From Corallococcus macrosporus (GTDB taxonomy: Bacteria > Myxococcota > Myxococcia > Myxococcales > Myxococcaceae), in assembly GCF_017302985.1 (NCBI RefSeq), contig NZ_JAFIMU010000007.1, forward strand, positions 310,001 to 374,000: a stretch of DNA of 64,000 bases, read 5' to 3'. The position numbers were made by a program, and so were the translations under genes. The notes below the pieces were generated by a model. It made no database searches, had not been told where the DNA came from, and worked only from the letters and a program-made list of their open reading frames with translations. Shown here in pieces: positions 4,419 through 35,076 of this stretch (positions are counted from its first letter, which is position 1; the number at the start of each line of letters is the position of its first letter).

Positions 4419-5621
4419 TTGTGCTTGCCATTGGCGGGAGAGGTCGCGCTGCTGGATGCGTTGGACCGCCAGGCCCGGCGCCGGGCGGAGGGCATCGCGA
4501 CCCTGAGCGTGCTGGAGGGACCGGAGACCCTGGGGGGGAGCCTCTGGAACCAGTGGGCCGCGAGGCACGGTCAGGGGGTGGTGGAGGTCTCCGGGGAGGA
4601 CCCGCATGCGGCGGCGCTCGGCTGGGCTCGGGCGCTGGCGGCGACCCGGGACCTGGGGGCGGACGCGGAGGCGCTGGCGACGTTCAGCCTGACGGCGGCG
4701 AATCCCAGACACACGCCGGTGTTCCGGGGAAAGACAGCGCATGAGCGGCGCGTGTTGTTGGACGCGGTGCCGCCGCCCGCGATGTTGCCGGAAGCCACCT
4801 GGGCGCTGTGCCGGGAGCTGGTGATTCACCGGGAGGCGGCGGAGCCCGGGGCATTGCCAGACGCGGTGCGCACGGCGCTCCAGAAGAACCCGGGCACGGG
4901 GCTGCGCGCGCTGCATGCGCTGGTGCCGCCCGGGAAGGCGCCGGTGGCGCGGGTGGCCGCGGGGCCCGCGCCCTCGTGCCCGGGGCTCACGCTGGCGGCG
5001 AAGTTGAGCAGCGCGGTGCCGTCGCTCGCGGTGGCGTGCGTGGTGTCCAGCGAGGCGCTGGAGGCGTTCCTGGCGGGCGGGGAGACGCGGCTGAAGGCGC
5101 TGGTGCGCGAGGGCGTGCTGACGGTGCCGGAGCCGGCGTCGGCGGCAGTGGGGGCGGTGGCGAAACTCGAGGAACTGGAGCGGCAGGGAGCCTCCGAGAC
5201 GCGACGAGCGCAGGCAGCCGAGGTGGCGCTGGCGGCGCATACCGGCGCGAGCAACCTGTCCGAGGACAGGGTCCGGAGCACCTACGAGGCCTATCTCCGC
5301 GACCGGCTCGCGGAGCACCCGACCACGGCAGGCGTCTTCAAGCTCAATGCCCCTGTCGACACAGGAGGACCTCGCCCGTGGGTGGTGGACTTCCTGAGCC
5401 GGGAGCTGCGGCTCGCGGTGGAGCTCGACGGCTACTACCACTTCAGTGACCGGGACCGGTTCCGGCGCGACCGGCGCAAGGACCTGGATCTGCAACGCGC
5501 TGGCTACTGGGTCTACCGCATCCACGGAGACGACCTGGTGCCCCGGCTCGAAGAAATCCTCCAGACCCTCAACACCCTGATCGATGCCCGCAGGCGTGAG
5601 CTTGCAGAGCGGGAGCGCTGA
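4419..5621 (+). CDS. DUF559/Vsr-like endonuclease-domain protein (first gene of a three-gene nuclease-ATPase cassette)
   Basis: This protein is about 400 residues long. The last 120 residues form a DUF559-type PD-(D/E)XK/Vsr-like nuclease: an early helix (STYEAYLRDRLAEHP), then VVDF (Asp324), AVELDGYYHF (Glu335, Asp337, His341) and RDRRKDLDLQRAGYWVYRI. The first 280 residues (Ala/Gly-rich, with an HERRVLLDAV segment) are not recognised and may be a target or partner-binding domain. No ATG lies near the start; TTG 4419, 4425 or 4431 are all possible behind a G-rich stretch, so the exact N-terminus is uncertain. The next gene starts 1 base after its stop. Stand-alone DUF559 proteins often travel with defence genes. 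A 132-bp gap upstream separates it from the MFS gene. Confidence 0.85.
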   Translation: MCLPLAGEVALLDALDRQARRRAEGIATLSVLEGPETLGGSLWNQWAARHGQGVVEVSGEDPHAAALGWARALAATRDLGADAEALATFSLTAANPRHTPVFRGKTAHERRVLLDAVPPPAMLPEATWALCRELVIHREAAEPGALPDAVRTALQKNPGTGLRALHALVPPGKAPVARVAAGPAPSCPGLTLAAKLSSAVPSLAVACVVSSEALEAFLAGGETRLKALVREGVLTVPEPASAAVGAVAKLEELERQGASETRRAQAAEVALAAHTGASNLSEDRVRSTYEAYLRDRLAEHPTTAGVFKLNAPVDTGGPRPWVVDFLSRELRLAVELDGYYHFSDRDRFRRDRRKDLDLQRAGYWVYRIHGDDLVPRLEEILQTLNTLIDARRRELAERER

Positions 5622-5622
5622 C

Positions 5623-6639
5623 ATGAATACCGACACCTCCGATAGCCGGCTTCAAGGCCTTGCCCTCGCATGGCTGGCGACACGCACTGAGAAGAAGCCG
5701 GGAACACGCAACGACCTGGCGAAGACGCTGCATGGCTTCGTGGAGCACCGCTGGAGCCGGGGAGAGTGGAACGAGCGGTTCGACTCCCTGATGGAGCAAC
5801 TCCTGGGCGCGGGGCTCGTGCAGAAGCGGTCCCGCACCGCGCTGGTGCTGACCGCGCAGGGACGCCAGCAGGCCTTGACGTTCCTGCGGGTGGATTCCCC
5901 CAAGGGCCTCACCTGGAAGCGGGTGCGGCAGCAATACCTGCTCGCGAAGGACCTGGGCCTACCGACCTCCAAGGCGGCGCTGGGACGGCTATCGAACGCG
6001 GATGGCATGCGGGCCCTGCTGCTCAAGCGCACGCATCAGGTCGAGGGCCCTGAGTTCCCGACGCTGGCCCAGGTCCGGGACCGGCTGATGTGGCGGAAGC
6101 TGGGCGTGGAAACGAATGAGAAATTCACCCTGCGAGCCATCCAGGCCCACCTGCTGGGCAAGCTGCTGGAGCAGGAGGTCAGCGATCCGAAGCGCGGCGT
6201 GGAGCAACTGGCGGCACGCGCGGTGGGGGCCTCCCGGGTGGACGCGGAGGCCTTGCGACTGGCGACCCTGCGGAAGTGGGTGCTGCAGGAGCAGGCGCCG
6301 GAGACCGCGAAGAAGTCCGTCCAGACGGTTCCCGTCGAAGTCCCACGGGAGACACCGCCGTCGGACCCCGCATCCTTCGCGAAGAACGTCCTGCGCGTCG
6401 CGAGGGCCCTGCCCACCGGACGCTTCGGGGACGACAAGGTCTTCATCTCGCACGTCTGGAAGGCGATGCAGCCTGGATGGACCCGCCGGGAGGACTTCGA
6501 CTCGGCGCTGCTCGAGGCCAATCGCAAGCGCCATCTGACGCTGACCCGCGCGGACCTCGTGTCGGTGATGAACCCGGCCGACGTGGCGGAGTCCGAGGTC
6601 CGCTTCTACGGCGCCACCTTCCACTTCGTCGTCGTCTAG
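5623..6639 (+). CDS. Uncharacterised winged-helix-like protein, middle gene of nuclease-ATPase cassette
   Basis: I cannot assign this 338-residue protein to a named family. Residues 20-90 (NDLAKTLHGFVEHRW... LGAGLVQKRSRTALVLTAQGRQ) read like a winged-helix domain: a recognition helix followed by a wing. The last 85 residues (KVFISHVWKAMQPGW... LTLTRADLVSVMNP) look like a second winged-helix module ending in the strand VRFYGATFHFVVV. Such bipartite architecture would suit DNA binding or bridging nuclease and ATPase. The ATG at 5623 is preferred over 5584 because it sits 1 base after the nuclease stop with GCGGGAGCG upstream. The ATPase follows 21 bases later. Confidence 0.85.
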   Translation: MNTDTSDSRLQGLALAWLATRTEKKPGTRNDLAKTLHGFVEHRWSRGEWNERFDSLMEQLLGAGLVQKRSRTALVLTAQGRQQALTFLRVDSPKGLTWKRVRQQYLLAKDLGLPTSKAALGRLSNADGMRALLLKRTHQVEGPEFPTLAQVRDRLMWRKLGVETNEKFTLRAIQAHLLGKLLEQEVSDPKRGVEQLAARAVGASRVDAEALRLATLRKWVLQEQAPETAKKSVQTVPVEVPRETPPSDPASFAKNVLRVARALPTGRFGDDKVFISHVWKAMQPGWTRREDFDSALLEANRKRHLTLTRADLVSVMNPADVAESEVRFYGATFHFVVV

Positions 6640-6660
6640 TCCGCCTCCGAAAGAGCCTCC

Positions 6661-9600
6661 ATGCCCACCGACGCGCGTCTTCAAGCATTCCTGGCTGATG
6701 GCCCCGAGGTCTTCGCCAGCGTCCAGCAGGCCCAGTCGTTCTGGAAGCCAGACCCCTTCGACGTCGAGTCCATCAACGTTCCCGCACGCCAGGCCTTCGA
6801 GCGGCTCGTGAAGCGCGCCACGCGGAACCCCGACTCCGGCAAGCTGTTCCTCCTCAAAGGCGAATCCGGCAGCGGAAAAACCCACCTGGTCCGCGCCTTC
6901 CGCCACGGCGTGCACTCCCGGAAGCGGGGATACGTCGGCTACCTCCCCATGACGGTGGATGCCGCCAACTACGACCGGTACATCCTGTCGAACCTCATCG
7001 ACACGCTGGACCGCACGTACGACGTGACCGTGGACGAGGACGACACGGGGCTGACCCGCCTGTCCAACGCGCTCATGAAGTACTGCAAGAGCGCGTTCGA
7101 GCCGCTCATCCACGACGAAGGCATCCTGGAGGAGCACGAGCTTCACGACATGATCCGCTCACTGGCGGATGAGCTTCATGAGAACCCGCTCTTCCGCCAC
7201 GTTGACGTCCAGCTCCTGCGCGCCCTCATCTACCTGCAACGCCGGGAGGCCAAGTACCACCACCGGGTCCTGCAGTGGCTGCGCTGCGAGGACATGGTTC
7301 CCGCCGACCGACAGGTCCTCGGCGACATCGTGCCGCGCACCGCGGACAACGACCCCATGCGCATGCTTACCCATCTGGGAAGGCTCATGGGGGCGATGGA
7401 GCAGGCGCTGGTCCTCTGCGTGGACCAGGTCGAGGACATCAGCGATTTCGAGAAGAACCCCGGCATGGAGACGTCGTTCCGGCGTGCCATCAACAGCCTG
7501 GCCGCTTTCGCGGGCAACGTTCCCTCGGCGGTCATCGTCGTCTGCTGCCTGTCTGACTTCTGGACGGAAATGAGCAAGCAACTCACGCGGGCGATGCTCG
7601 ACCGCATCGAGAACGACCCCGCGCCCGTCACCCTGGACCATCTGCTCACGGAGCAGACCGCGCAGGACATGGTCGCCCAGCGGATGCGCGTGCTCCTCAG
7701 CCATCACGGGCTTGAAGTGGACCCCGGGGATCCGACCTATCCGATTCCTCGCCCCGACCTCGAGCGGTTCAGCGGCCTGCGAGTGCGGGATGCGCTCAAT
7801 GCCTGTCGTCGCTTCCAGGAGCAGGCCTGCCAGGACGGAAAGCTGCCTCGACATCTCCTCCTTCCCGGAGAGGACAAGAAGAAGAAGGACGGCGAGGAGC
7901 TCAAGCTGGTCCAGCAGGCCACCATGGACCAGAAGTGGACCGACTTCCGGGCGAAGTTCAACGGCGCCATCCCTGAAGAGGATGCGGAGATCGTCTCCCT
8001 GCTGGCCTGGGCCATCGAGGCAGGAGGTGACGAACTGGGGGCAACGGATCAATTCAAGGTCAAGCCGCGCACGGAGGCGTCCATCGACGTCGTCCTCCCG
8101 ACCCATGCCCAGGGACTGTTCGTGGCGCTCTGCAATCGCTCGCCCCGAGGTGGCGGGCTCGGCCGTCAGATGGCCGAAGCTCTCCGGTCCGCGGCTCGCA
8201 AGCTGCCGGTCATCCTCCGCACCGCGGAGTTCCCCGGCAATCCCAACGGGCTCGTCGCGGAGCAGGTGGGCGCACTCTTGCGAAGGGGCGGCAGGCGAGC
8301 CGTGGTGAGCAACAGCGACCTGCGAGAAGTCGTGGCCCTGCAGTCCTTCCGGAAGGAGCATCCGGAGGCAGCGTTCCGCGAATGGAGCCGGTCGGCGCGC
8401 CCCCTCACCCGTCTGAAAGTGATCTCGGACGTGCTCGCGCTCGAGAAGCTCCCTCCCTCCCCCCCGCCTGCCCGTGAGCCCCCTCACGCCGCTGACTCCC
8501 CCGGGAAGGCGGCTGCCCCGGCCATCCTGAAACCAGCCCAGGGCGAGCGCCGCACCGCGCAGCTTGAGAGTGCGCGACGCACGGACGCCCCCGTGGAGAC
8601 GGGGTCGGCCGGGGTGCGTGATTCGCAGGACGAGGTCGAACTGGAAGGACGGCGCATCCAGTCCATCAGCGAGCCGCTGGTGAGCAAGGGCCCGGGAAGG
8701 ACCCGGACGCCCACGGAAGTGCAGCAGCAGAAGACCTCCAGCGACACGAAGCCGGGCGCGCTGCGGATCGGCGAGTCCGAAGGGGTCTTCACCAATCCGG
8801 TCTTCCTGCAGACGGAGGAACTGACGAAGCACAGCGCGTTCCTCGGCGGCTCCGGCAGTGGCAAGACGACGCTCGCGTTGAACCTCATCGAGCAACTGCT
8901 CCTGCAGGGCATCCCCGCGCTGCTGGTGGACCGCAAGGGCGACCTTGCCGCGTACGCGCGTGACGAGGCCTGGGAGGAGGAGCTGAAGGACCCCGCGATG
9001 GAGCAGCGCCGGCGTCTGCTGCGAGAGCGCGTGGACGTGGCCCTCTACACGCCGGGACGCACCGACGGCCGGGCGCTCGCGATTCCGGTGGTTCCTCAAG
9101 GGCTGGAAGCACTGCCGCCCGAGGAGCGCGAGCAGAGCGTGCAGCAGGCCGCGGACGCCATCTCTAGCATGCTCGAGTACCGCAACAGCGCCAGGGACAA
9201 GGCCGCGAAGGCGTTGCTTGCGCAGGCCCTGCGGCTGCTCGTGGAACGGCCCATCGGGCAGGAGCTGAGCCTCGACCTGGTGCAGAAGTTCATCGCGTCC
9301 GAGGACATCACCCTCGTCCAGGAGACCAGCGGCATCGACCTCAAGGTGTTCCCGAAGCTCGCCCAGGATCTGGCGACGCTGCGGCTCAACGCGCGGAACC
9401 TCCTGGCCGCCCAGGGCGAGAAGCTGAACATGGAGGAGCTGCTCGGGTTGGGGAGCGCGAAGGTGCCGGGCAAGACGCGGCTGAGCATCATCAGCACCAA
9501 GTTCCTGGGTGGAACGCAGGGCGCGCTCTTCTGGGTGTCGCAGCTGCTCGTGGAGGCCAATCGCTGGGCCAGCCAGCACCCCTCCTCCAAGCTGCAGGCG

Positions 9601-10008
9601 GTCCTGATGTTCGACGAGGCGGACATGTACCTGCCGGCCGTGGGCATCCCCGCGACCAAGCAGCCCATGGAGAACCTGCTCAAGCGCGCGCGCTCGGCGG
9701 GCATCGGCGTGATGCTCGCGACCCAGAGCCCCGGCGACTTCGACTACAAGTGCCGGGAGAACGTGCGCAGCTGGTTCATTGGCCGCGTGCGGGAGGACCG
9801 GGCGCTCGGAAAGCTCCGGCCCATGTTCTCGGATGCGCGCGTGGATCCGGCCACGCGTCTTCCGGCGCAGAAGATGGGCCAGTTCCACGTCCTGCGCGAC
9901 GGCCAGGTGGAGCAGCTCAAGGCGGACCGGAACATCATCAAGACGGACCAGCTCTCCGAGGACGAAATCCTCCAGCTCGCGCGCCGCTCCCGCGAACAGG
10001 GCTCCTGA
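6661..10008 (+). CDS. Double P-loop ATPase: N-terminal AAA/BrxC-like NTPase fused to HerA/FtsK-like domain
   Basis: This 1,115-residue protein has two complete ATPase halves. Half one: Walker A GESGSGKT at 67-74, Walker B VLCVDQVED at 251-259, and an AAA lid-like region up to about 400 (RFSGLRVRDALNACRRF). A middle section (about 420-590) has a small Rossmann-like segment, then a Pro/Ala-rich probably disordered tether (about 605-690). Half two: Walker A GGSGSGKTT at 729-737, strand IPALLVDRKGDLAAYA, Walker B VLMFDEADMYLP near 981-992 and the sensor-like TQSPGDFDYKCRENV at 1021. The IPALLVDRKGD and TQSPGD patterns are typical of HerA/VirB4/FtsK hexameric DNA pumps. It closes the cassette with the nuclease and winged-helix genes. 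Base composition looks somewhat less GC-rich than flanking genes by eye. Confidence 0.92.
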   Translation: MPTDARLQAFLADGPEVFASVQQAQSFWKPDPFDVESINVPARQAFERLVKRATRNPDSGKLFLLKGESGSGKTHLVRAFRHGVHSRKRGYVGYLPMTVDAANYDRYILSNLIDTLDRTYDVTVDEDDTGLTRLSNALMKYCKSAFEPLIHDEGILEEHELHDMIRSLADELHENPLFRHVDVQLLRALIYLQRREAKYHHRVLQWLRCEDMVPADRQVLGDIVPRTADNDPMRMLTHLGRLMGAMEQALVLCVDQVEDISDFEKNPGMETSFRRAINSLAAFAGNVPSAVIVVCCLSDFWTEMSKQLTRAMLDRIENDPAPVTLDHLLTEQTAQDMVAQRMRVLLSHHGLEVDPGDPTYPIPRPDLERFSGLRVRDALNACRRFQEQACQDGKLPRHLLLPGEDKKKKDGEELKLVQQATMDQKWTDFRAKFNGAIPEEDAEIVSLLAWAIEAGGDELGATDQFKVKPRTEASIDVVLPTHAQGLFVALCNRSPRGGGLGRQMAEALRSAARKLPVILRTAEFPGNPNGLVAEQVGALLRRGGRRAVVSNSDLREVVALQSFRKEHPEAAFREWSRSARPLTRLKVISDVLALEKLPPSPPPAREPPHAADSPGKAAAPAILKPAQGERRTAQLESARRTDAPVETGSAGVRDSQDEVELEGRRIQSISEPLVSKGPGRTRTPTEVQQQKTSSDTKPGALRIGESEGVFTNPVFLQTEELTKHSAFLGGSGSGKTTLALNLIEQLLLQGIPALLVDRKGDLAAYARDEAWEEELKDPAMEQRRRLLRERVDVALYTPGRTDGRALAIPVVPQGLEALPPEEREQSVQQAADAISSMLEYRNSARDKAAKALLAQALRLLVERPIGQELSLDLVQKFIASEDITLVQETSGIDLKVFPKLAQDLATLRLNARNLLAAQGEKLNMEELLGLGSAKVPGKTRLSIISTKFLGGTQGALFWVSQLLVEANRWASQHPSSKLQAVLMFDEADMYLPAVGIPATKQPMENLLKRARSAGIGVMLATQSPGDFDYKCRENVRSWFIGRVREDRALGKLRPMFSDARVDPATRLPAQKMGQFHVLRDGQVEQLKADRNIIKTDQLSEDEILQLARRSREQGS

Positions 10009-10187: not shown

Positions 10188-12614
10188 ATGGTGGTGCGAC
10201 AGGGCCAGGAGCGGACCACGCACGGGCGCGCAATACCCGGGGAGTGCTCGTCCCTCCAGGCCCTCGAAACCCTGGAGCGCATCTCCGATGCGGTCGTCTC
10301 GCTCGACCGCTCCTGGCGCTTCACCTACCTCAACGCGCGCAGCGAGTGGCTGCTGCGCCGCCCGCGCTCGGCGCTCATCGGGCGTGTCCTGTGGGAGGAG
10401 TTCCCGGAGGCGCGTGGCTCCATCTTCGAGCGGGAGTACCGGCGGGCGCTCGAGGAGCAGGTCGACGTCGCGTTCGAGACCTACTTCGCGCCCCTGGAGG
10501 CCTGGGTTGACGTGCAGGCGTACCCGTCCTCGGAGGGCCTCACCGTCTGTTTCCGGGACGTCAGCGCCCGCAAGCGCGCCGCACGCGCGCTGCATGAGTC
10601 GGAGCAGTTCCTGCGCTCCACGCTCGACTCGCTGTCCACGCACATCGCCATCCTCGATGGCCGGGGCACCATCCTCGCCGTCAATGCCGCGTGGCGCCGC
10701 TTCGCGCACGACAACGGCTGCGCGGAGGTGGACGGGCACAGTCCGTGCGGCGTGGGCGCGAACTACCTGGGCGTGACGGAAGCCTCCAAGGGCGAGTTCT
10801 CCGAGGAGGCGCCGTCCGTGGCGTCGGGCATCCACGACATCATCGCCGGCCGCACCGAGCCGTTCCTCCTGGAGTACCCCTGTCATGACCCATTCAAGGG
10901 CCAGCAGCGCTGGTTCCTGCTGCGCGCCACGCGCTTCGCCGGGCCGGGGCCCCTGCGCGTGGTGGTGGCCCACGAGGACATCACCGGCCGCCACGAAGCC
11001 GACGAGGCCCGGCGCCAGCTGATCCGCGAAGAGGCCGCCCGCGAGGAAGCGGAGGCGGCGCGCGAGCGCATGAACGCGGTGCTCGAGCGCATCACCGACG
11101 GCTTCGCCGCGTTCGACCTGGATGGCCGCTTCACCTACGTGAACCGGCCCGCGGAGGCGCACTTCGGCCGCAAGCGCGAGGCGCTCCTGGGACGGCGCCT
11201 GGAGGAGGTCTTCTCCGGCACCCAGGGCGCGGCCATGGCCTCGCTGCTGCACCGGGCGACGGAGGCGCAGGTCCCCGTGGAGGAGGAGCAGCCCTCGGTC
11301 GTGGACAACCGCTGGCTGCGCGTCGTGGCGTACCCGTCCCAGGAAGGACTCTCCGTCTACTTCCGCGACATCACCGAGCAGCGGCGCGTCGAGCTCTGGA
11401 GCCACTTCCTCTCCGACATGGGCGCCGCCAGCACGCGCTCGCTGGACTGCGGGGACGTGATCCGCGGCGTGGTGACGCACGCGGTGCCCACGCTCGCGGA
11501 CGGCTGCGCCATCACCACGCGGGACGCCTGCTCCGAGGAGGAGCCCTCCACCGAGGCCGTCGCCATGACGCCCGGGCTGGGAGACGCGCTGCGCGCGGCG
11601 TGCGCACCGGGAGCCCAGGGCGCGCTGGGCCAGCTCGTGACGCAGGCGGTGGGCACGGAGTCCGGGGTGTTGATGCAGGAGCCCTCTCCGGGCGCTCCTG
11701 GCGTGGAGTCCGCGGTGGCCGTACCGCTGGCCCTCCAGGACCGCTCCCTGGGAGTGCTGCTGCTGGTGTCCACGCGCCCGGGCGTGCGCTACGGCGCGGA
11801 GAGCCTCCCCCTCGTGAGCGAGCTGGCGCGGAGGACCGCGCTGGCGCTGGAGAACGCGCGGCTGTACCGCACCGCCCGCCAGGCCGTCGGCGCGCGCGAC
11901 GAGACGCTGGGCATCGTGTCCCATGACCTGCGCGCGCCGCTGAACACCATCTCCCTGCTGTCCCGCAGCGCGGAGAAGCGCCTGGTCCAGCGGGCCGAAG
12001 GGGCGGAGGCCGCGGAGGCGCTGCGGAAGATCCGCCTCGTGGTGGGCAACATGGAGCGGCTCATCGACGACCTGCTGGAGGTGGCGCGGGTGGAGTCGGG
12101 GCGCGCGCAGCTGGACGTGGAGCCGCTGGAGGTGCCCCGGCTGCTCGCCCAGGTGCAGGCCTTGAACGAGCTGCTCGCGGCGGACAAGGCGCTGCGCCTG
12201 GAAGTGGACTTCGAGCAGGGCCTGCCGCGGGTGCGCGCGGACCGGGCGCGCGTGGCGCGCATCTTCCAGAACCTGCTGGGCAACGCCATCCACTTCACCC
12301 CGCCTGGAGGCCACATCTTCCTGAAGGCGGAGCGCCGCGGTGAGCAGGTCTGCTTCCGCGTGAAGGACTCGGGCCCCGGCATCGACGCGGCGGCGCTGCC
12401 CCACGTGTTCGACCGCTTCTGGCAGGCCATCCACGCGCGAAAGGCGGGCGCCGGGCTGGGGCTCGCCATCGTCAAGGGGCTGGTGGAGGCGCACGGCGGC
12501 CGTGTCTGGGTGGAGAGCCAGCCGGGCCAGGGCGCCGCGTTCTCCTTCACGCTGCCAGCCCTCCCGGAGCCCCCCGCGAGCGTCCGGCAGGAGGGCGGAG
12601 AGGCCAGTCCCTGA
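10188..12614 (+). CDS. Sensor histidine kinase with three PAS domains and a GAF domain
   Basis: This 808-residue cytosolic kinase has PAS domains at roughly 17-125, 135-265 and 293-395, and a GAF domain at about 405-560. The HisKA segment has phospho-acceptor His579 in VSHDLRAPLNT. The HATPase_c domain (about 680-795) shows the N box NLLGNAIHFTPPGG, G1 DSGPGID and G2 GAGLGLAIV. No membrane segments or receiver domain are present, so it should sense a cytoplasmic signal and pass phosphate to an unlinked response regulator; no regulator gene lies nearby. The ATG at 10188 follows GGGGGGAGG by 4-5 bases; longer upstream frames overlap the ATPase gene and are rejected. A 179-bp gap separates it from that gene. 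Confidence 0.95.
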   Translation: MVVRQGQERTTHGRAIPGECSSLQALETLERISDAVVSLDRSWRFTYLNARSEWLLRRPRSALIGRVLWEEFPEARGSIFEREYRRALEEQVDVAFETYFAPLEAWVDVQAYPSSEGLTVCFRDVSARKRAARALHESEQFLRSTLDSLSTHIAILDGRGTILAVNAAWRRFAHDNGCAEVDGHSPCGVGANYLGVTEASKGEFSEEAPSVASGIHDIIAGRTEPFLLEYPCHDPFKGQQRWFLLRATRFAGPGPLRVVVAHEDITGRHEADEARRQLIREEAAREEAEAARERMNAVLERITDGFAAFDLDGRFTYVNRPAEAHFGRKREALLGRRLEEVFSGTQGAAMASLLHRATEAQVPVEEEQPSVVDNRWLRVVAYPSQEGLSVYFRDITEQRRVELWSHFLSDMGAASTRSLDCGDVIRGVVTHAVPTLADGCAITTRDACSEEEPSTEAVAMTPGLGDALRAACAPGAQGALGQLVTQAVGTESGVLMQEPSPGAPGVESAVAVPLALQDRSLGVLLLVSTRPGVRYGAESLPLVSELARRTALALENARLYRTARQAVGARDETLGIVSHDLRAPLNTISLLSRSAEKRLVQRAEGAEAAEALRKIRLVVGNMERLIDDLLEVARVESGRAQLDVEPLEVPRLLAQVQALNELLAADKALRLEVDFEQGLPRVRADRARVARIFQNLLGNAIHFTPPGGHIFLKAERRGEQVCFRVKDSGPGIDAAALPHVFDRFWQAIHARKAGAGLGLAIVKGLVEAHGGRVWVESQPGQGAAFSFTLPALPEPPASVRQEGGEASP

Positions 12615-33409: not shown

Positions 33410-34324
33410 ATGCGTTTCCGGACCTGCAGCACCCTCCTGCTCCTGTGTGTCCTCTCGGCCTGCGCGACGTCGGCGCCGCATTCCGGCACGCGGAGCCCGA
33501 GACTCGCCAACCTCCAGCGGGCCGCGAAGCTGCCCTGGACGGACGAGGGACGGTGCGTTGTCCGCGAAGCGTCCCAGCCGTGGCCCGTGCTGATGGAGCA
33601 GTGCTATCCGAGCCTCGACCATGACCGGCTCGAGTTCCACGACACGGAGGGAAGATGCGCGGTCGCCTCCGCGGGCGCGGGGGCCCTGGGAGTCGGGCTC
33701 TGTGTGCTGGCGGCTCCTGAGATTGCCGTGGGAGCTGTCATCGTCCTGGGCGTGGTGGTGGTCGCCGTCGCCATCAAGGAAGAGCTGGACGCGTATGAGC
33801 TTCGACATGCATACCCCGAGGAGGCAGGGACCTCACGAGGAACAAAGGTGTCGTCCCGAGAAGTGGAAGCGCAACACGAGCCTGGCCTGAAGCCGGAGCC
33901 AGCGGGGCAGAACAGGAAGCCCCCGTTGCCGCCCGTACCCGTGGGCCGGACGGGACGCGCCAGTTGCGAGCCCGTTCCAGTCCCCCATGCGGGCGAGGAC
34001 GACGCGCATAACAAGTGCGCCGACAAGGCTCCGCCCAACCGTTACCCAGGCATGGACGTGCTCGTGGGCGGCGTGCGCTTCGATGCGCTACAGGTCGGCG
34101 CGCATGTGCTGTGGGAGATCAAGACCCACCGCTTCGACACGTACTCTGCCTTCATCCAGAGGCGGGAAATCAAGAAGGAAATGGAGCAGATCAAAAAGGA
34201 GCAAGACGCGGCGATGGCCTGCGGATATGGCTACGTGATTGGTGTGAGCACCCAGGCGCATAAGGTCGCGCTGCTCGAAGCGGATCCCTCCCTGGAGATT
34301 GTCGTAACGGGGTGCAAACGATGA
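33410..34324 (+). CDS. Lipoprotein polymorphic toxin with PD-(D/E)XK nuclease end (SitA/DUF6310-like)
   Basis: This 304-residue protein has a lipoprotein signal peptide (TLLLLCVLSAC, acylated Cys18). Two hydrophobic segments follow at about 85-125, then a Pro-rich basic linker (about 165-190). The C-terminal domain carries D225...E236-x-K238 in RFDALQVGAHVLWEIKTHRF and then a long charged helix, the arrangement of restriction-endonuclease-like toxins. Myxobacterial SitA toxins are lipoproteins passed between kin by outer-membrane exchange, with immunity genes directly downstream; the layout here matches. The next gene overlaps by 4 bases. Whether it cuts DNA or RNA is untested. Confidence 0.82.
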   Translation: MRFRTCSTLLLLCVLSACATSAPHSGTRSPRLANLQRAAKLPWTDEGRCVVREASQPWPVLMEQCYPSLDHDRLEFHDTEGRCAVASAGAGALGVGLCVLAAPEIAVGAVIVLGVVVVAVAIKEELDAYELRHAYPEEAGTSRGTKVSSREVEAQHEPGLKPEPAGQNRKPPLPPVPVGRTGRASCEPVPVPHAGEDDAHNKCADKAPPNRYPGMDVLVGGVRFDALQVGAHVLWEIKTHRFDTYSAFIQRREIKKEMEQIKKEQDAAMACGYGYVIGVSTQAHKVALLEADPSLEIVVTGCKR

Positions 34325-35076
34325 CCACGCCTGAGGCACTCACCCTTATCGTCCACGCGCCTGCACTCGTGGAGGAAGACGCCCGCGCGCTCGACGTCAT
34401 CCATGGGATGGAAAAGGCACTCCCCGGTTTGCGCCTGGCGTGGCGAGTCTCCGAAGGCGGGCACCCCATCGCATTGCCGAATCGCGACGCGTGGCTCGCG
34501 AAAATGACGCGGGACGGGAAGTTCCCTCTTCTGTGCAACGGGGACGAGAGCTACCCCGTGACGGTTTTTGGGATGGGGGTGTCGGGACGCCTCAGCCCGG
34601 GCGGTCAGGCACGGCTTGAAGTGCATGCGGAAACGCCATCGGACGCCCCCGTGATCGCGGCAGCGGCGGCGATGCTTGAAGCCGTGGCCGAGGGCGCGCG
34701 TGCGTACTGGGGACACGCGTCACCGTACGGTTACGGCTCGGAGGTCGCGCAGCAGTTTCGCCGTTCGCCTCATGGACCAGAGCGTTCACCCCGTGGGCTT
34801 CCCATGCTCATCCGTCCAGAGAAGCTCTCCGCGCCTGCGACCCCCTGGTTCCTTGCGTGGCTGAACTATTGGTCCGCCGCCGCAGCGCAGGTCATCGGAT
34901 TCCCGGATCCTGCTCGCGACGCCGAGTTGCTTACAAGGGCACGGCGTACGCCGTCAGGTGGGTGGATCGTGCAGCTCACGGATGCGCCGCTCGATTACGA
35001 CAACCCCGCCCACCTGGACGCGCTCCTGCGCGCCTATGAGCGCTTCCCGGAGATCGGCGGACGCGCGGCGCCTTGA
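34321..35076 (+). CDS. Probable immunity protein (DUF5953-like) for the upstream toxin
   Basis: This 251-residue soluble protein has no signal peptide and no hydrophobic segments (MTTPEALTLIVHAPALVEEDARALDVIHGMEKALPG). The family is named DUF5953 as best I recall, found in Corallococcus and Myxococcus next to DUF6310-type lipoproteins. Its start overlaps the toxin stop (ATGA), so toxin and partner are made together, as expected for a self-protection gene. The interaction itself is inference. Its 3' end overlaps the small convergent gene on the minus strand by about 43 bases. Confidence 0.8.
   Translation: MTTPEALTLIVHAPALVEEDARALDVIHGMEKALPGLRLAWRVSEGGHPIALPNRDAWLAKMTRDGKFPLLCNGDESYPVTVFGMGVSGRLSPGGQARLEVHAETPSDAPVIAAAAAMLEAVAEGARAYWGHASPYGYGSEVAQQFRRSPHGPERSPRGLPMLIRPEKLSAPATPWFLAWLNYWSAAAAQVIGFPDPARDAELLTRARRTPSGGWIVQLTDAPLDYDNPAHLDALLRAYERFPEIGGRAAP

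What the first reader, a model, noticed from the sequence alone, without database searches (positions are those of the whole stretch)
4419..10008. Candidate undescribed nuclease / winged-helix / HerA-like ATPase system
Three genes with gaps of 1 and 21 bases encode a DUF559-type nuclease, an unassigned protein with winged-helix-like ends, and a 1,115-residue ATPase with two P-loop halves. HerA-like pumps paired with nucleases (for example HerA with Sir2 or DUF4297) are established anti-phage systems, but I know none with this three-part composition. The flanking genes are ordinary chromosomal genes, and the cassette looks slightly less GC-rich, as an inserted module would.
Basis: partly seen in the sequence, partly recalled or inferred. 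Interest (0 to 1): 0.8.

Follow-up and report, generated by a model that had tools for sequence, protein, structure and literature searches.

The report
Three-gene DNA-pump and nuclease defence candidate
Three neighbouring bacterial genes encode a DNA-cutting enzyme, a DNA-binding partner and a large DNA-pumping motor that travel together in very distant bacteria, probably a machine that destroys invading DNA; the general kind was predicted on computers before, but this exact form was not found described in the papers searched and has not been tested.

Summary
Genes A (DUF559 nuclease), B (winged helix) and C (1,115 aa: STAND/ORC-like AAA+, middle domain, HerA/FtsK motor) lie tandem at 4419-10008. 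Among 35 full-length C loci, B adjoins C in 35 and A adjoins B in 32, in three phyla. Nuclease and ATPase residues are invariant. Pfam and PADLOC match parts of A and C, nothing in B; the motor resembles Mad8. A distant myxobacterium keeps A, B and the AAA half but has a motor closer to DndH, the signature of published "HerA/FtsK capture" anti-invader systems (PMC10853773), whose domain list this partly matches. In Corallococcus it is no recent insert: C is in 12 of 12 genomes, at one site where compared, among housekeeping genes; yet between allele groups the trio differs far more than its flanks (most extreme of 15 pairs: trio 71% identity, dS 0.52; flanks 95%, 0.11). Best reading: a DNA-restriction machine without a modification gene, a new variant of a predicted kind. 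Defence is inferred, not shown; the inactive-nuclease reading of C's middle is unconfirmed.

The parts
4425..5621 (+).
   Evidence: profile of A: PDB 3hrl 9.4e-9, 3r3p 0.0026; DUF559 in 24 of 24 rows of A3
5379..5573 (+). DUF559 nuclease domain of A (residues 321-385)
   Evidence: D324, E335, D337, H341, D351, R352 (and E290 upstream) invariant in 24 of 24 rows
5623..6639 (+). Gene B: winged-helix protein, 338 aa
   Evidence: no family match
5635..5883 (+). N-terminal winged helix of B (residues 5-87)
   Evidence: Z 10.1, rmsd 2.0, 76 aligned
6661..10008 (+). Gene C: AAA+ / middle domain / HerA-FtsK motor, 1,115 aa
6778..7860 (+). C, STAND/ORC-like AAA+ domain (about residues 40-400), Walker A GESGSGKT, Walker B VDQ
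   Evidence: K73, T74, D255, Q256, R315 invariant in 28 of 28
7981..8304 (+). C, middle domain (residues 441-548), predicted helix, three strands, helix, strand as in REase folds; possible inactive REase
   Evidence: over 23 rows the only invariant acidic residue is E458 and no lysine is invariant; not confirmed by sequence
8443..8754 (+). C, low-confidence variable linker (residues 595-698)
   Evidence: pLDDT under 50
8746..9984 (+). C, HerA/FtsK/VirB4-type motor (residues 696-1108), Mad8-like
   Evidence: Z 27.1 VirB4, 26.5 DndH-C, 26.2 HerA, tied; mad8 in 28 of 28

Best explanation
A, B and C form one anti-invader complex. Proposed steps: the B winged-helix protein and the AAA+ half of C recognise or load on incoming DNA; the HerA/FtsK half of C forms a ring that pumps that DNA; nuclease A, fed or triggered by the motor, cuts it. 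No methylase or other DNA-modifying gene was found among 9 flanking proteins, so self is probably not marked by modification; discrimination would rest on the state of the DNA or on the recognition parts. Shown: the three genes, their cross-phylum linkage, intact active-site residues, a motor of another type on the same chassis in a relative, and divergent alleles at a fixed site. Inferred: complex formation, DNA pumping, cutting, and defence itself.
For: B adjoins C in 35 of 35 and A adjoins B in 32 of 35 full-length C loci (7, in two of which A is cut by the contig end; 3; 25), in three phyla. Nuclease residues invariant in 24 of 24 rows, both Walker sites in 28 of 28. Motor closest in fold to VirB4, DndH-C and HerA, tied; best PADLOC match mad8 (1.4e-24; DndH 0.0066). 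In G082 the same A, B, AAA and middle parts (HMM E 1.6e-27, 3.1e-20, 5.3e-30, 1.8e-8) carry a motor that our motor profile sees only at 3.6e-5 (E-values for the frames of 11 loci only) and that matches DndH at 9.9e-24, mad8 at 3.7e-16 and DptH 7es4 at 5.7e-9: the motor exchange described for HerA/FtsK capture systems. Fixed site but divergent alleles: mean dS of the trio exceeds that of the flanks in 15 of 15 species pairs, most in L052 vs L053 (trio aa 71%, dS 0.52; flanks 95%, 0.11). Purifying selection: mean dN/dS A 0.45, B 0.24, C 0.23. Patchy in the family: full-length C in 21 of 49 genomes, two copies in 5.
Against: No function test exists. The neighbours identified are housekeeping genes. 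C is in every genome of the window's genus that was searched (12 of 12), unusual for a defence system. Within the two allele groups (W, L001, L052; L053, L054) the trio's protein identity about equals that of the flanks (0.89/0.89, 0.89/0.89, 0.89/0.91, 0.91/0.92). Six B-C loci lack A beside them (L059, L061, L064, L081, L084, L096); three of those genomes hold A with their other copy, G076 has no A match, and G082 holds an A homologue (L095) with no B or C found on the stretch fetched. C's middle domain has no detectable sequence kin. The PADLOC scan of neighbours was mixed (114 proteins, 103 models matched at 1e-15, 25 shown: PD-T4-6, mad6, other kinase and PtuA-type models), so a defence context is neither shown nor excluded.
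Confidence: 0.6

Rival explanations
1. A chromosome-maintenance machine: a HerA-NurA-like motor with a nuclease that processes DNA ends or stalled forks, kept as a core function in Corallococcus.
For: C in 12 of 12 genomes of the genus, fixed site, purifying selection; HerA of HerA-NurA is among the close folds of the motor.
Against: No full-length C was found in 28 of 49 family genomes (some genomes are incomplete); divergent alleles; a DndH-like motor on the same chassis in a relative; 6 B-C loci lack A; A matches only DUF559 and MTES_1575 in Pfam, not NurA.
Confidence: 0.2
2. A DNA uptake, release or transfer motor, relative of type IV coupling proteins, suited to a predatory bacterium.
For: TrwB and VirB4 are close folds; Pfam TrwB_AAD_bind in 28 of 28 at E up to 0.01.
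Against: No secretion, pilus or relaxase gene among 9 flanking proteins; hydropathy gives no convincing membrane span: 6 of C's 19-residue windows and 3 of A's reach 1.6 or more, C's best around residues 277-280 in the AAA core.
Confidence: 0.08
3. An abortive-infection form of the same defence idea: A is a toxic nuclease that attacks host DNA or RNA once the AAA+ sensor is triggered, rather than cutting the invader. This overlaps the best explanation in being anti-invader; the odds given are not exclusive.
For: STAND-like matches of the AAA domain (nSTAND1 in 23 of 28, NACHT in 28 of 28 at E up to 0.01); B-C loci can lack A; a HerA-DUF4297 paper links such complexes to signalling (PMC12198126, seen only in a search listing).
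Against: A DNA pump is not obviously needed for an abortive toxin; nothing here separates the two.
Confidence: 0.3

Closest known systems
ORC/CDC6-HerA/FtsK 'capture' systems (PMC10853773, 2024, computational prediction)
   Same: AAA+ of the STAND/ORC type, HerA/FtsK motor, wHTH protein and active nuclease in one locus; motor of different types on like systems in relatives
   Different: Active nuclease here is DUF559 (the words DUF559 and MTES do not occur in the main text); AAA, middle domain and motor fused in one protein; fixed chromosomal site within genera; iREase and ORC-type C-terminal wHTH not confirmed
DndFGH / DptFGH
   Same: HerA motor fold (DndH-C Z 26.5); a relative in G082 carries a DndH-like motor; wHTH partner
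   Different: No DndF or DndG match for A or B; DndH models match C only in the motor; no DNA-modification gene among 9 flanking proteins
MADS (Mad8)
   Same: Motor domain of C matches mad8 in 28 of 28
   Different: No methyltransferase or Ser/Thr kinase among 9 proteins beside the window trio; only the motor is shared
HerA-DUF4297, SIR2-HerA (Nezha), HerA-NurA
   Same: Nuclease or other effector plus HerA motor
   Different: Partner is DUF559; a third gene B; an extra N-terminal AAA+ and middle domain on the motor

Membership tests
ORC/CDC6-HerA/FtsK capture system (PMC10853773) | ORC/CDC6-family AAA+ ATPase | tested here: inconclusive
   AAA_22 and AAA_16 in 28 of 28, nSTAND1 in 23 of 28; ORC-specific inserts not examined
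ORC/CDC6-HerA/FtsK capture system (PMC10853773) | Inactive REase between AAA+ core and a C-terminal wHTH | tested here: inconclusive
   Predicted helix, three strands, helix, strand; only one invariant acidic residue and no invariant lysine; no profile match; domain not folded alone; wHTH after it not examined
ORC/CDC6-HerA/FtsK capture system (PMC10853773) | Active REase of one of two families (one AbiJ-type) | tested here: inconclusive
   An active-looking DUF559 nuclease is present; the second family is not named in the text read
ORC/CDC6-HerA/FtsK capture system (PMC10853773) | HerA/FtsK domain | tested here: met
ORC/CDC6-HerA/FtsK capture system (PMC10853773) | wHTH component | tested here: met
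   B N-terminus
[quoted passage not shown]
   Mad8-like in the window clade, DndH-like in L094; one case, long branches
ORC/CDC6-HerA/FtsK capture system (PMC10853773) | Mobile gene neighbourhood | tested here: inconclusive
   Fixed sites within genera, different sites between genera, divergent alleles in one slot, three phyla
DndFGH | DndF and DndG genes beside DndH | tested here: not met
   A and B give no DndF or DndG match up to E 1
MADS | Methyltransferase and further mad genes (composition recalled) | tested here: not met
   No methyltransferase among 9 flanking proteins (Pfam); only a mad8-like motor
HerA-DUF4297 / SIR2-HerA | DUF4297 or SIR2 partner | tested here: not met
   A matches only DUF559 and MTES_1575; B matches nothing
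HerA-NurA | NurA nuclease partner | tested here: not met
Any anti-phage system | Protects against phage or plasmid | not testable with these tools
   needs experiment

The most novel reading that the evidence does not exclude
A cross-phylum defence family without a modification gene (DUF559 nuclease, winged-helix protein, AAA+-HerA motor) with an exchangeable motor, held in myxobacteria as a permanent chromosomal slot whose alleles are swapped between species: a genus-wide innate immunity locus rather than an island passenger.
Probability: 0.35. Interest if true: 0.7.

Novelty: new variant of a known kind. Interest (0 to 1): 0.52.

Why it matters
If right, it adds a concrete, compact and testable member to a class of DNA-pump restriction systems that the papers seen here describe from computation, links Mad8-like and DndH-like motors as interchangeable parts of one chassis, and shows such a system fixed across a bacterial genus with swapping alleles, which would suggest how non-mobile immunity keeps pace.

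Tried and rejected
Homology of A's or B's unassigned parts with C: none by profile comparison. Middle of C against PDB profiles: best E 0.2, not an REase. Phage records: no match to C at E 1e-5. Repeats, promoters and terminators at the locus: 40 direct and 29 inverted short imperfect repeat families, none a clear insertion boundary; 0 promoter-like and 4 terminator-like sites against 2.8 expected. Papers: PMC10853773 passages and section 22; PMC12839542 passages; PMC11980395 passages; all others only as search listings. Searches for this trio or its class in print. The MADS gene list, and the reading of PD-T4-6 and mad6 as kinases, are recalled. The name HtrA-like for the protease beside A-less loci is my reading of the sequence, not a family search.

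Rows dropped or set apart: one record with runs of N (L047) is in alignments A1 and A2 and was left out of A4-A7. The HerA-only loci (L042-L046, L049-L051) and the split locus L047/L048 are outside the 35-locus count; L081, L084, L094 and L096 are told apart from it, and L082 and L083 are cut by contig ends so that A could not be judged. The trees left out L002, L004, L005 and L007. The PADLOC neighbour scan used 114 proteins, drawn from the 180 listed. In L005 the frame of A runs on without its stop, so its A may be broken or misread.

Full report
Observation. A carries a C-terminal DUF559 domain, B matches no family, C has two P-loop ATPase parts. The trio is poorer in GC than the window (68.5 against 71.9%) and its GC3 is 88-89% against 94-97% for the seven neighbouring genes measured. 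The 9 flanking proteins scanned are ordinary.

Naming. I call its genus Corallococcus because G007, listed as the same genus, has its match at the coordinates of the Corallococcus interemptor locus L001.

Is it a unit? The single-protein scan of genome contigs gave 7 loci, all Corallococcus or Myxococcaceae, all with A, B and C (A cut by the contig end in two). A search of the plasmid collection with C gave 3 records, from Tsukamurella, Nonomuraea (an 11.9-Mb record labelled plasmid) and Methylobacterium; all three have the same order, DUF559 protein, middle protein, AAA-HerA protein, at 22-24% identity to our C. In Tsukamurella the trio sits inside a ribosomal-protein gene cluster. I fetched 35 longer stretches, 33 from the window's own family and 2 from one genome of its order; 25 hold a full-length C. 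Over 7 + 3 + 25 = 35 loci, B adjoins C in 35 and A adjoins B in 32. The three exceptions (L059, L061, L064) put B-C beside a divergent protease-like gene, and each of those genomes has one strong A match, in its other, complete copy (one also has a weak partial match). Two more distant loci, L081 and L084, have B-C without A. Against tight linkage, G082 also holds an A homologue (L095) with no B or C found on the stretch fetched.

Distribution. C is found in 12 of 12 genomes of the window's genus counting the own one, once in the own genome. In 49 family genomes 33 match at E 0.001, but 12 of these match only in or near the motor; full-length C is in 21 of 49, and 5 of those hold two copies (42 of the 49 genomes are at least 90% complete and at most 5% contaminated). 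In 58 genomes of the phylum 27 match, many by short pieces. No phage record matches; viral contigs gave two motor-only matches.

Parts. A: DUF559 and MTES_1575 in 24 of 24 homologues, PDB relatives by profile 3hrl (9.4e-9) and the mobile-intron protein 3r3p (0.0026); E290, D324, E335, D337, H341, D351 and R352 are invariant in 24 of 24. The first ~280 residues are unassigned. B: predicted N-terminal winged helix, further helical parts and a poorly modelled end. C: the AAA domain has Walker A GxxGxGKT and a VDQ Walker B, invariant in 28 of 28, with weak STAND matches. Residues 441-548 are predicted as helix, three strands, helix, strand, the order of restriction-enzyme folds; over 23 rows the only invariant acidic residue is E458 and no lysine is invariant. 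This is suggestive only, since no profile search confirmed it. Residues 595-698 have pLDDT under 50. Residues 696-1108 superpose on VirB4 (Z 27.1, rmsd 3.5, 333 aligned), DndH-C 7es4 (26.5) and HerA 4d2i (26.2), which are tied; PADLOC mad8 matches 28 of 28 with the best E-value of the models shown.

Motor exchange. One distant genome (G082) has, besides a C with our type of motor (L084), a second system (L094) in which A (E 1.6e-27), B (3.1e-20), the AAA domain (5.3e-30) and the middle domain (1.8e-8) match our profiles while the motor matches ours only at 3.6e-5 (E-values for the frames of 11 loci). That motor matches DndH at 9.9e-24 and mad8 at 3.7e-16, the reverse order of the window's C (mad8 1.4e-24, DndH 0.0066), and DptH 7es4 at 5.7e-9. 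It also matches, at 32% identity, the DUF87 protein that follows dptF and dptG in a Priestia plasmid and pairs with it in the tree at 100/100, with the tool's warning about long branches. A further G082 locus (L096) and a Xanthobacter plasmid locus (L098) hold B and the same kind of AAA protein without A; in the latter the AAA protein is short and IS genes lie just downstream.

Evolution at the site. Within each genus the trio lies at one site, between genera at different sites. In the window's genus the left neighbour is the MFS gene wherever the contig reaches it; on the right the PAS kinase follows C directly in W, L001, L002, L052, L053 and L054, while in L003, L004, L006, L007 and L055 several other genes lie between C and that kinase. 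In the six loci with usable flanks (W, L001, L052-L055) mean dS of the trio exceeds that of the flanks in 15 of 15 pairs, from 0.27/0.21 to 0.52/0.11 (for L055 only the two left genes count as flank). At the protein level the trio is about as divergent as the flanks inside the groups W-L001-L052 and L053-L054, but far more divergent between groups: L052 and L053 share 95% of flank residues and 71% of trio residues. Lower codon bias in the trio may account for part of the dS excess in the close pairs, hardly for the four- to fivefold ones; exchange of divergent alleles in a fixed slot is the simplest reading. Selection is purifying (mean dN/dS A 0.45, n 8; B 0.24, n 8; C 0.23, n 7).

Context. 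Ten neighbour proteins from other loci are glutathione synthetase (two), a glycosyltransferase, anthranilate synthase, an FAD enzyme, a lytic-transglycolase-like protein, a PolyA polymerase-like protein, a subtilase and two without family. PADLOC on 114 neighbours matched 103 models somewhere at 1e-15; the 25 shown are mainly PD-T4-6, mad6 and other kinase models (3-4 proteins each) and PtuA-type ATPases (4); I did not resolve whether any is a true defence gene.

Comparison. PMC10853773 (section 22) describes loci with an ORC/CDC6 AAA+ ATPase, an inactive REase set in it, an active REase, a HerA/FtsK domain and wHTH proteins, in one or several polypeptides, with motors captured from several clades; the passages read propose that they intercept invading DNA. 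The trio works like that class and meets three listed features; three more are unconfirmed and one (mobile neighbourhood) is ambiguous. PMC12839542 describes further HerA/FtsK-centred systems with BREX parts such as PglZ (passages); no such part was matched here. By their partner genes the trio is not DndFGH, MADS, HerA-DUF4297, SIR2-HerA or HerA-NurA.

Verdict. A real, conserved, probably functional three-gene DNA-pump nuclease system; most likely anti-invader (0.6). New variant of a predicted kind. Its most interesting features are the exchanged motor and the genus-wide fixed slot with divergent alleles.

Noticed in passing
L059 10372-11406, L061 8038-9066, L064 10123-11100: B-C pairs without nuclease A, each next to a divergent gene that reads like an HtrA-type serine protease; the same genomes carry a complete trio elsewhere.
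   Followed up: partly
L095 6837-8261: An A homologue (475-residue frame) in G082 with no B or C detected on the 8.7-kb stretch fetched.
   Followed up: no
L082 3467-5593, L083 1778-4096: In G076 a second AAA gene with weak similarity to C's AAA domain follows C, recalling published pairs of ORC/CDC6 proteins.
   Followed up: no
L098 5841-8562: Xanthobacter plasmid pXAUT01 holds a B homologue and a short C-type AAA protein; IS genes lie just downstream and part of C's middle domain appears only as a separate short frame.
   Followed up: partly
L042, L043, L044, L046, L049, L051, L085, L087, L088: Another myxobacterial family of roughly 700-950 aa proteins with a Mad8-like motor and no AAA half detected; its gene neighbours were not identified.
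   Followed up: no
window 10188-12611: The PAS histidine kinase right of the trio has the highest mean dN/dS of the seven flanking genes measured (0.58).
   Followed up: no
window 34001-35000: A dip in GC to 64.3% in a 72% window; not examined.
   Followed up: no
L009 6247-11215: In Tsukamurella the trio lies inside a ribosomal-protein gene cluster on a record labelled plasmid, next to a VapBC pair and a DEAD/DEAH helicase.
   Followed up: no
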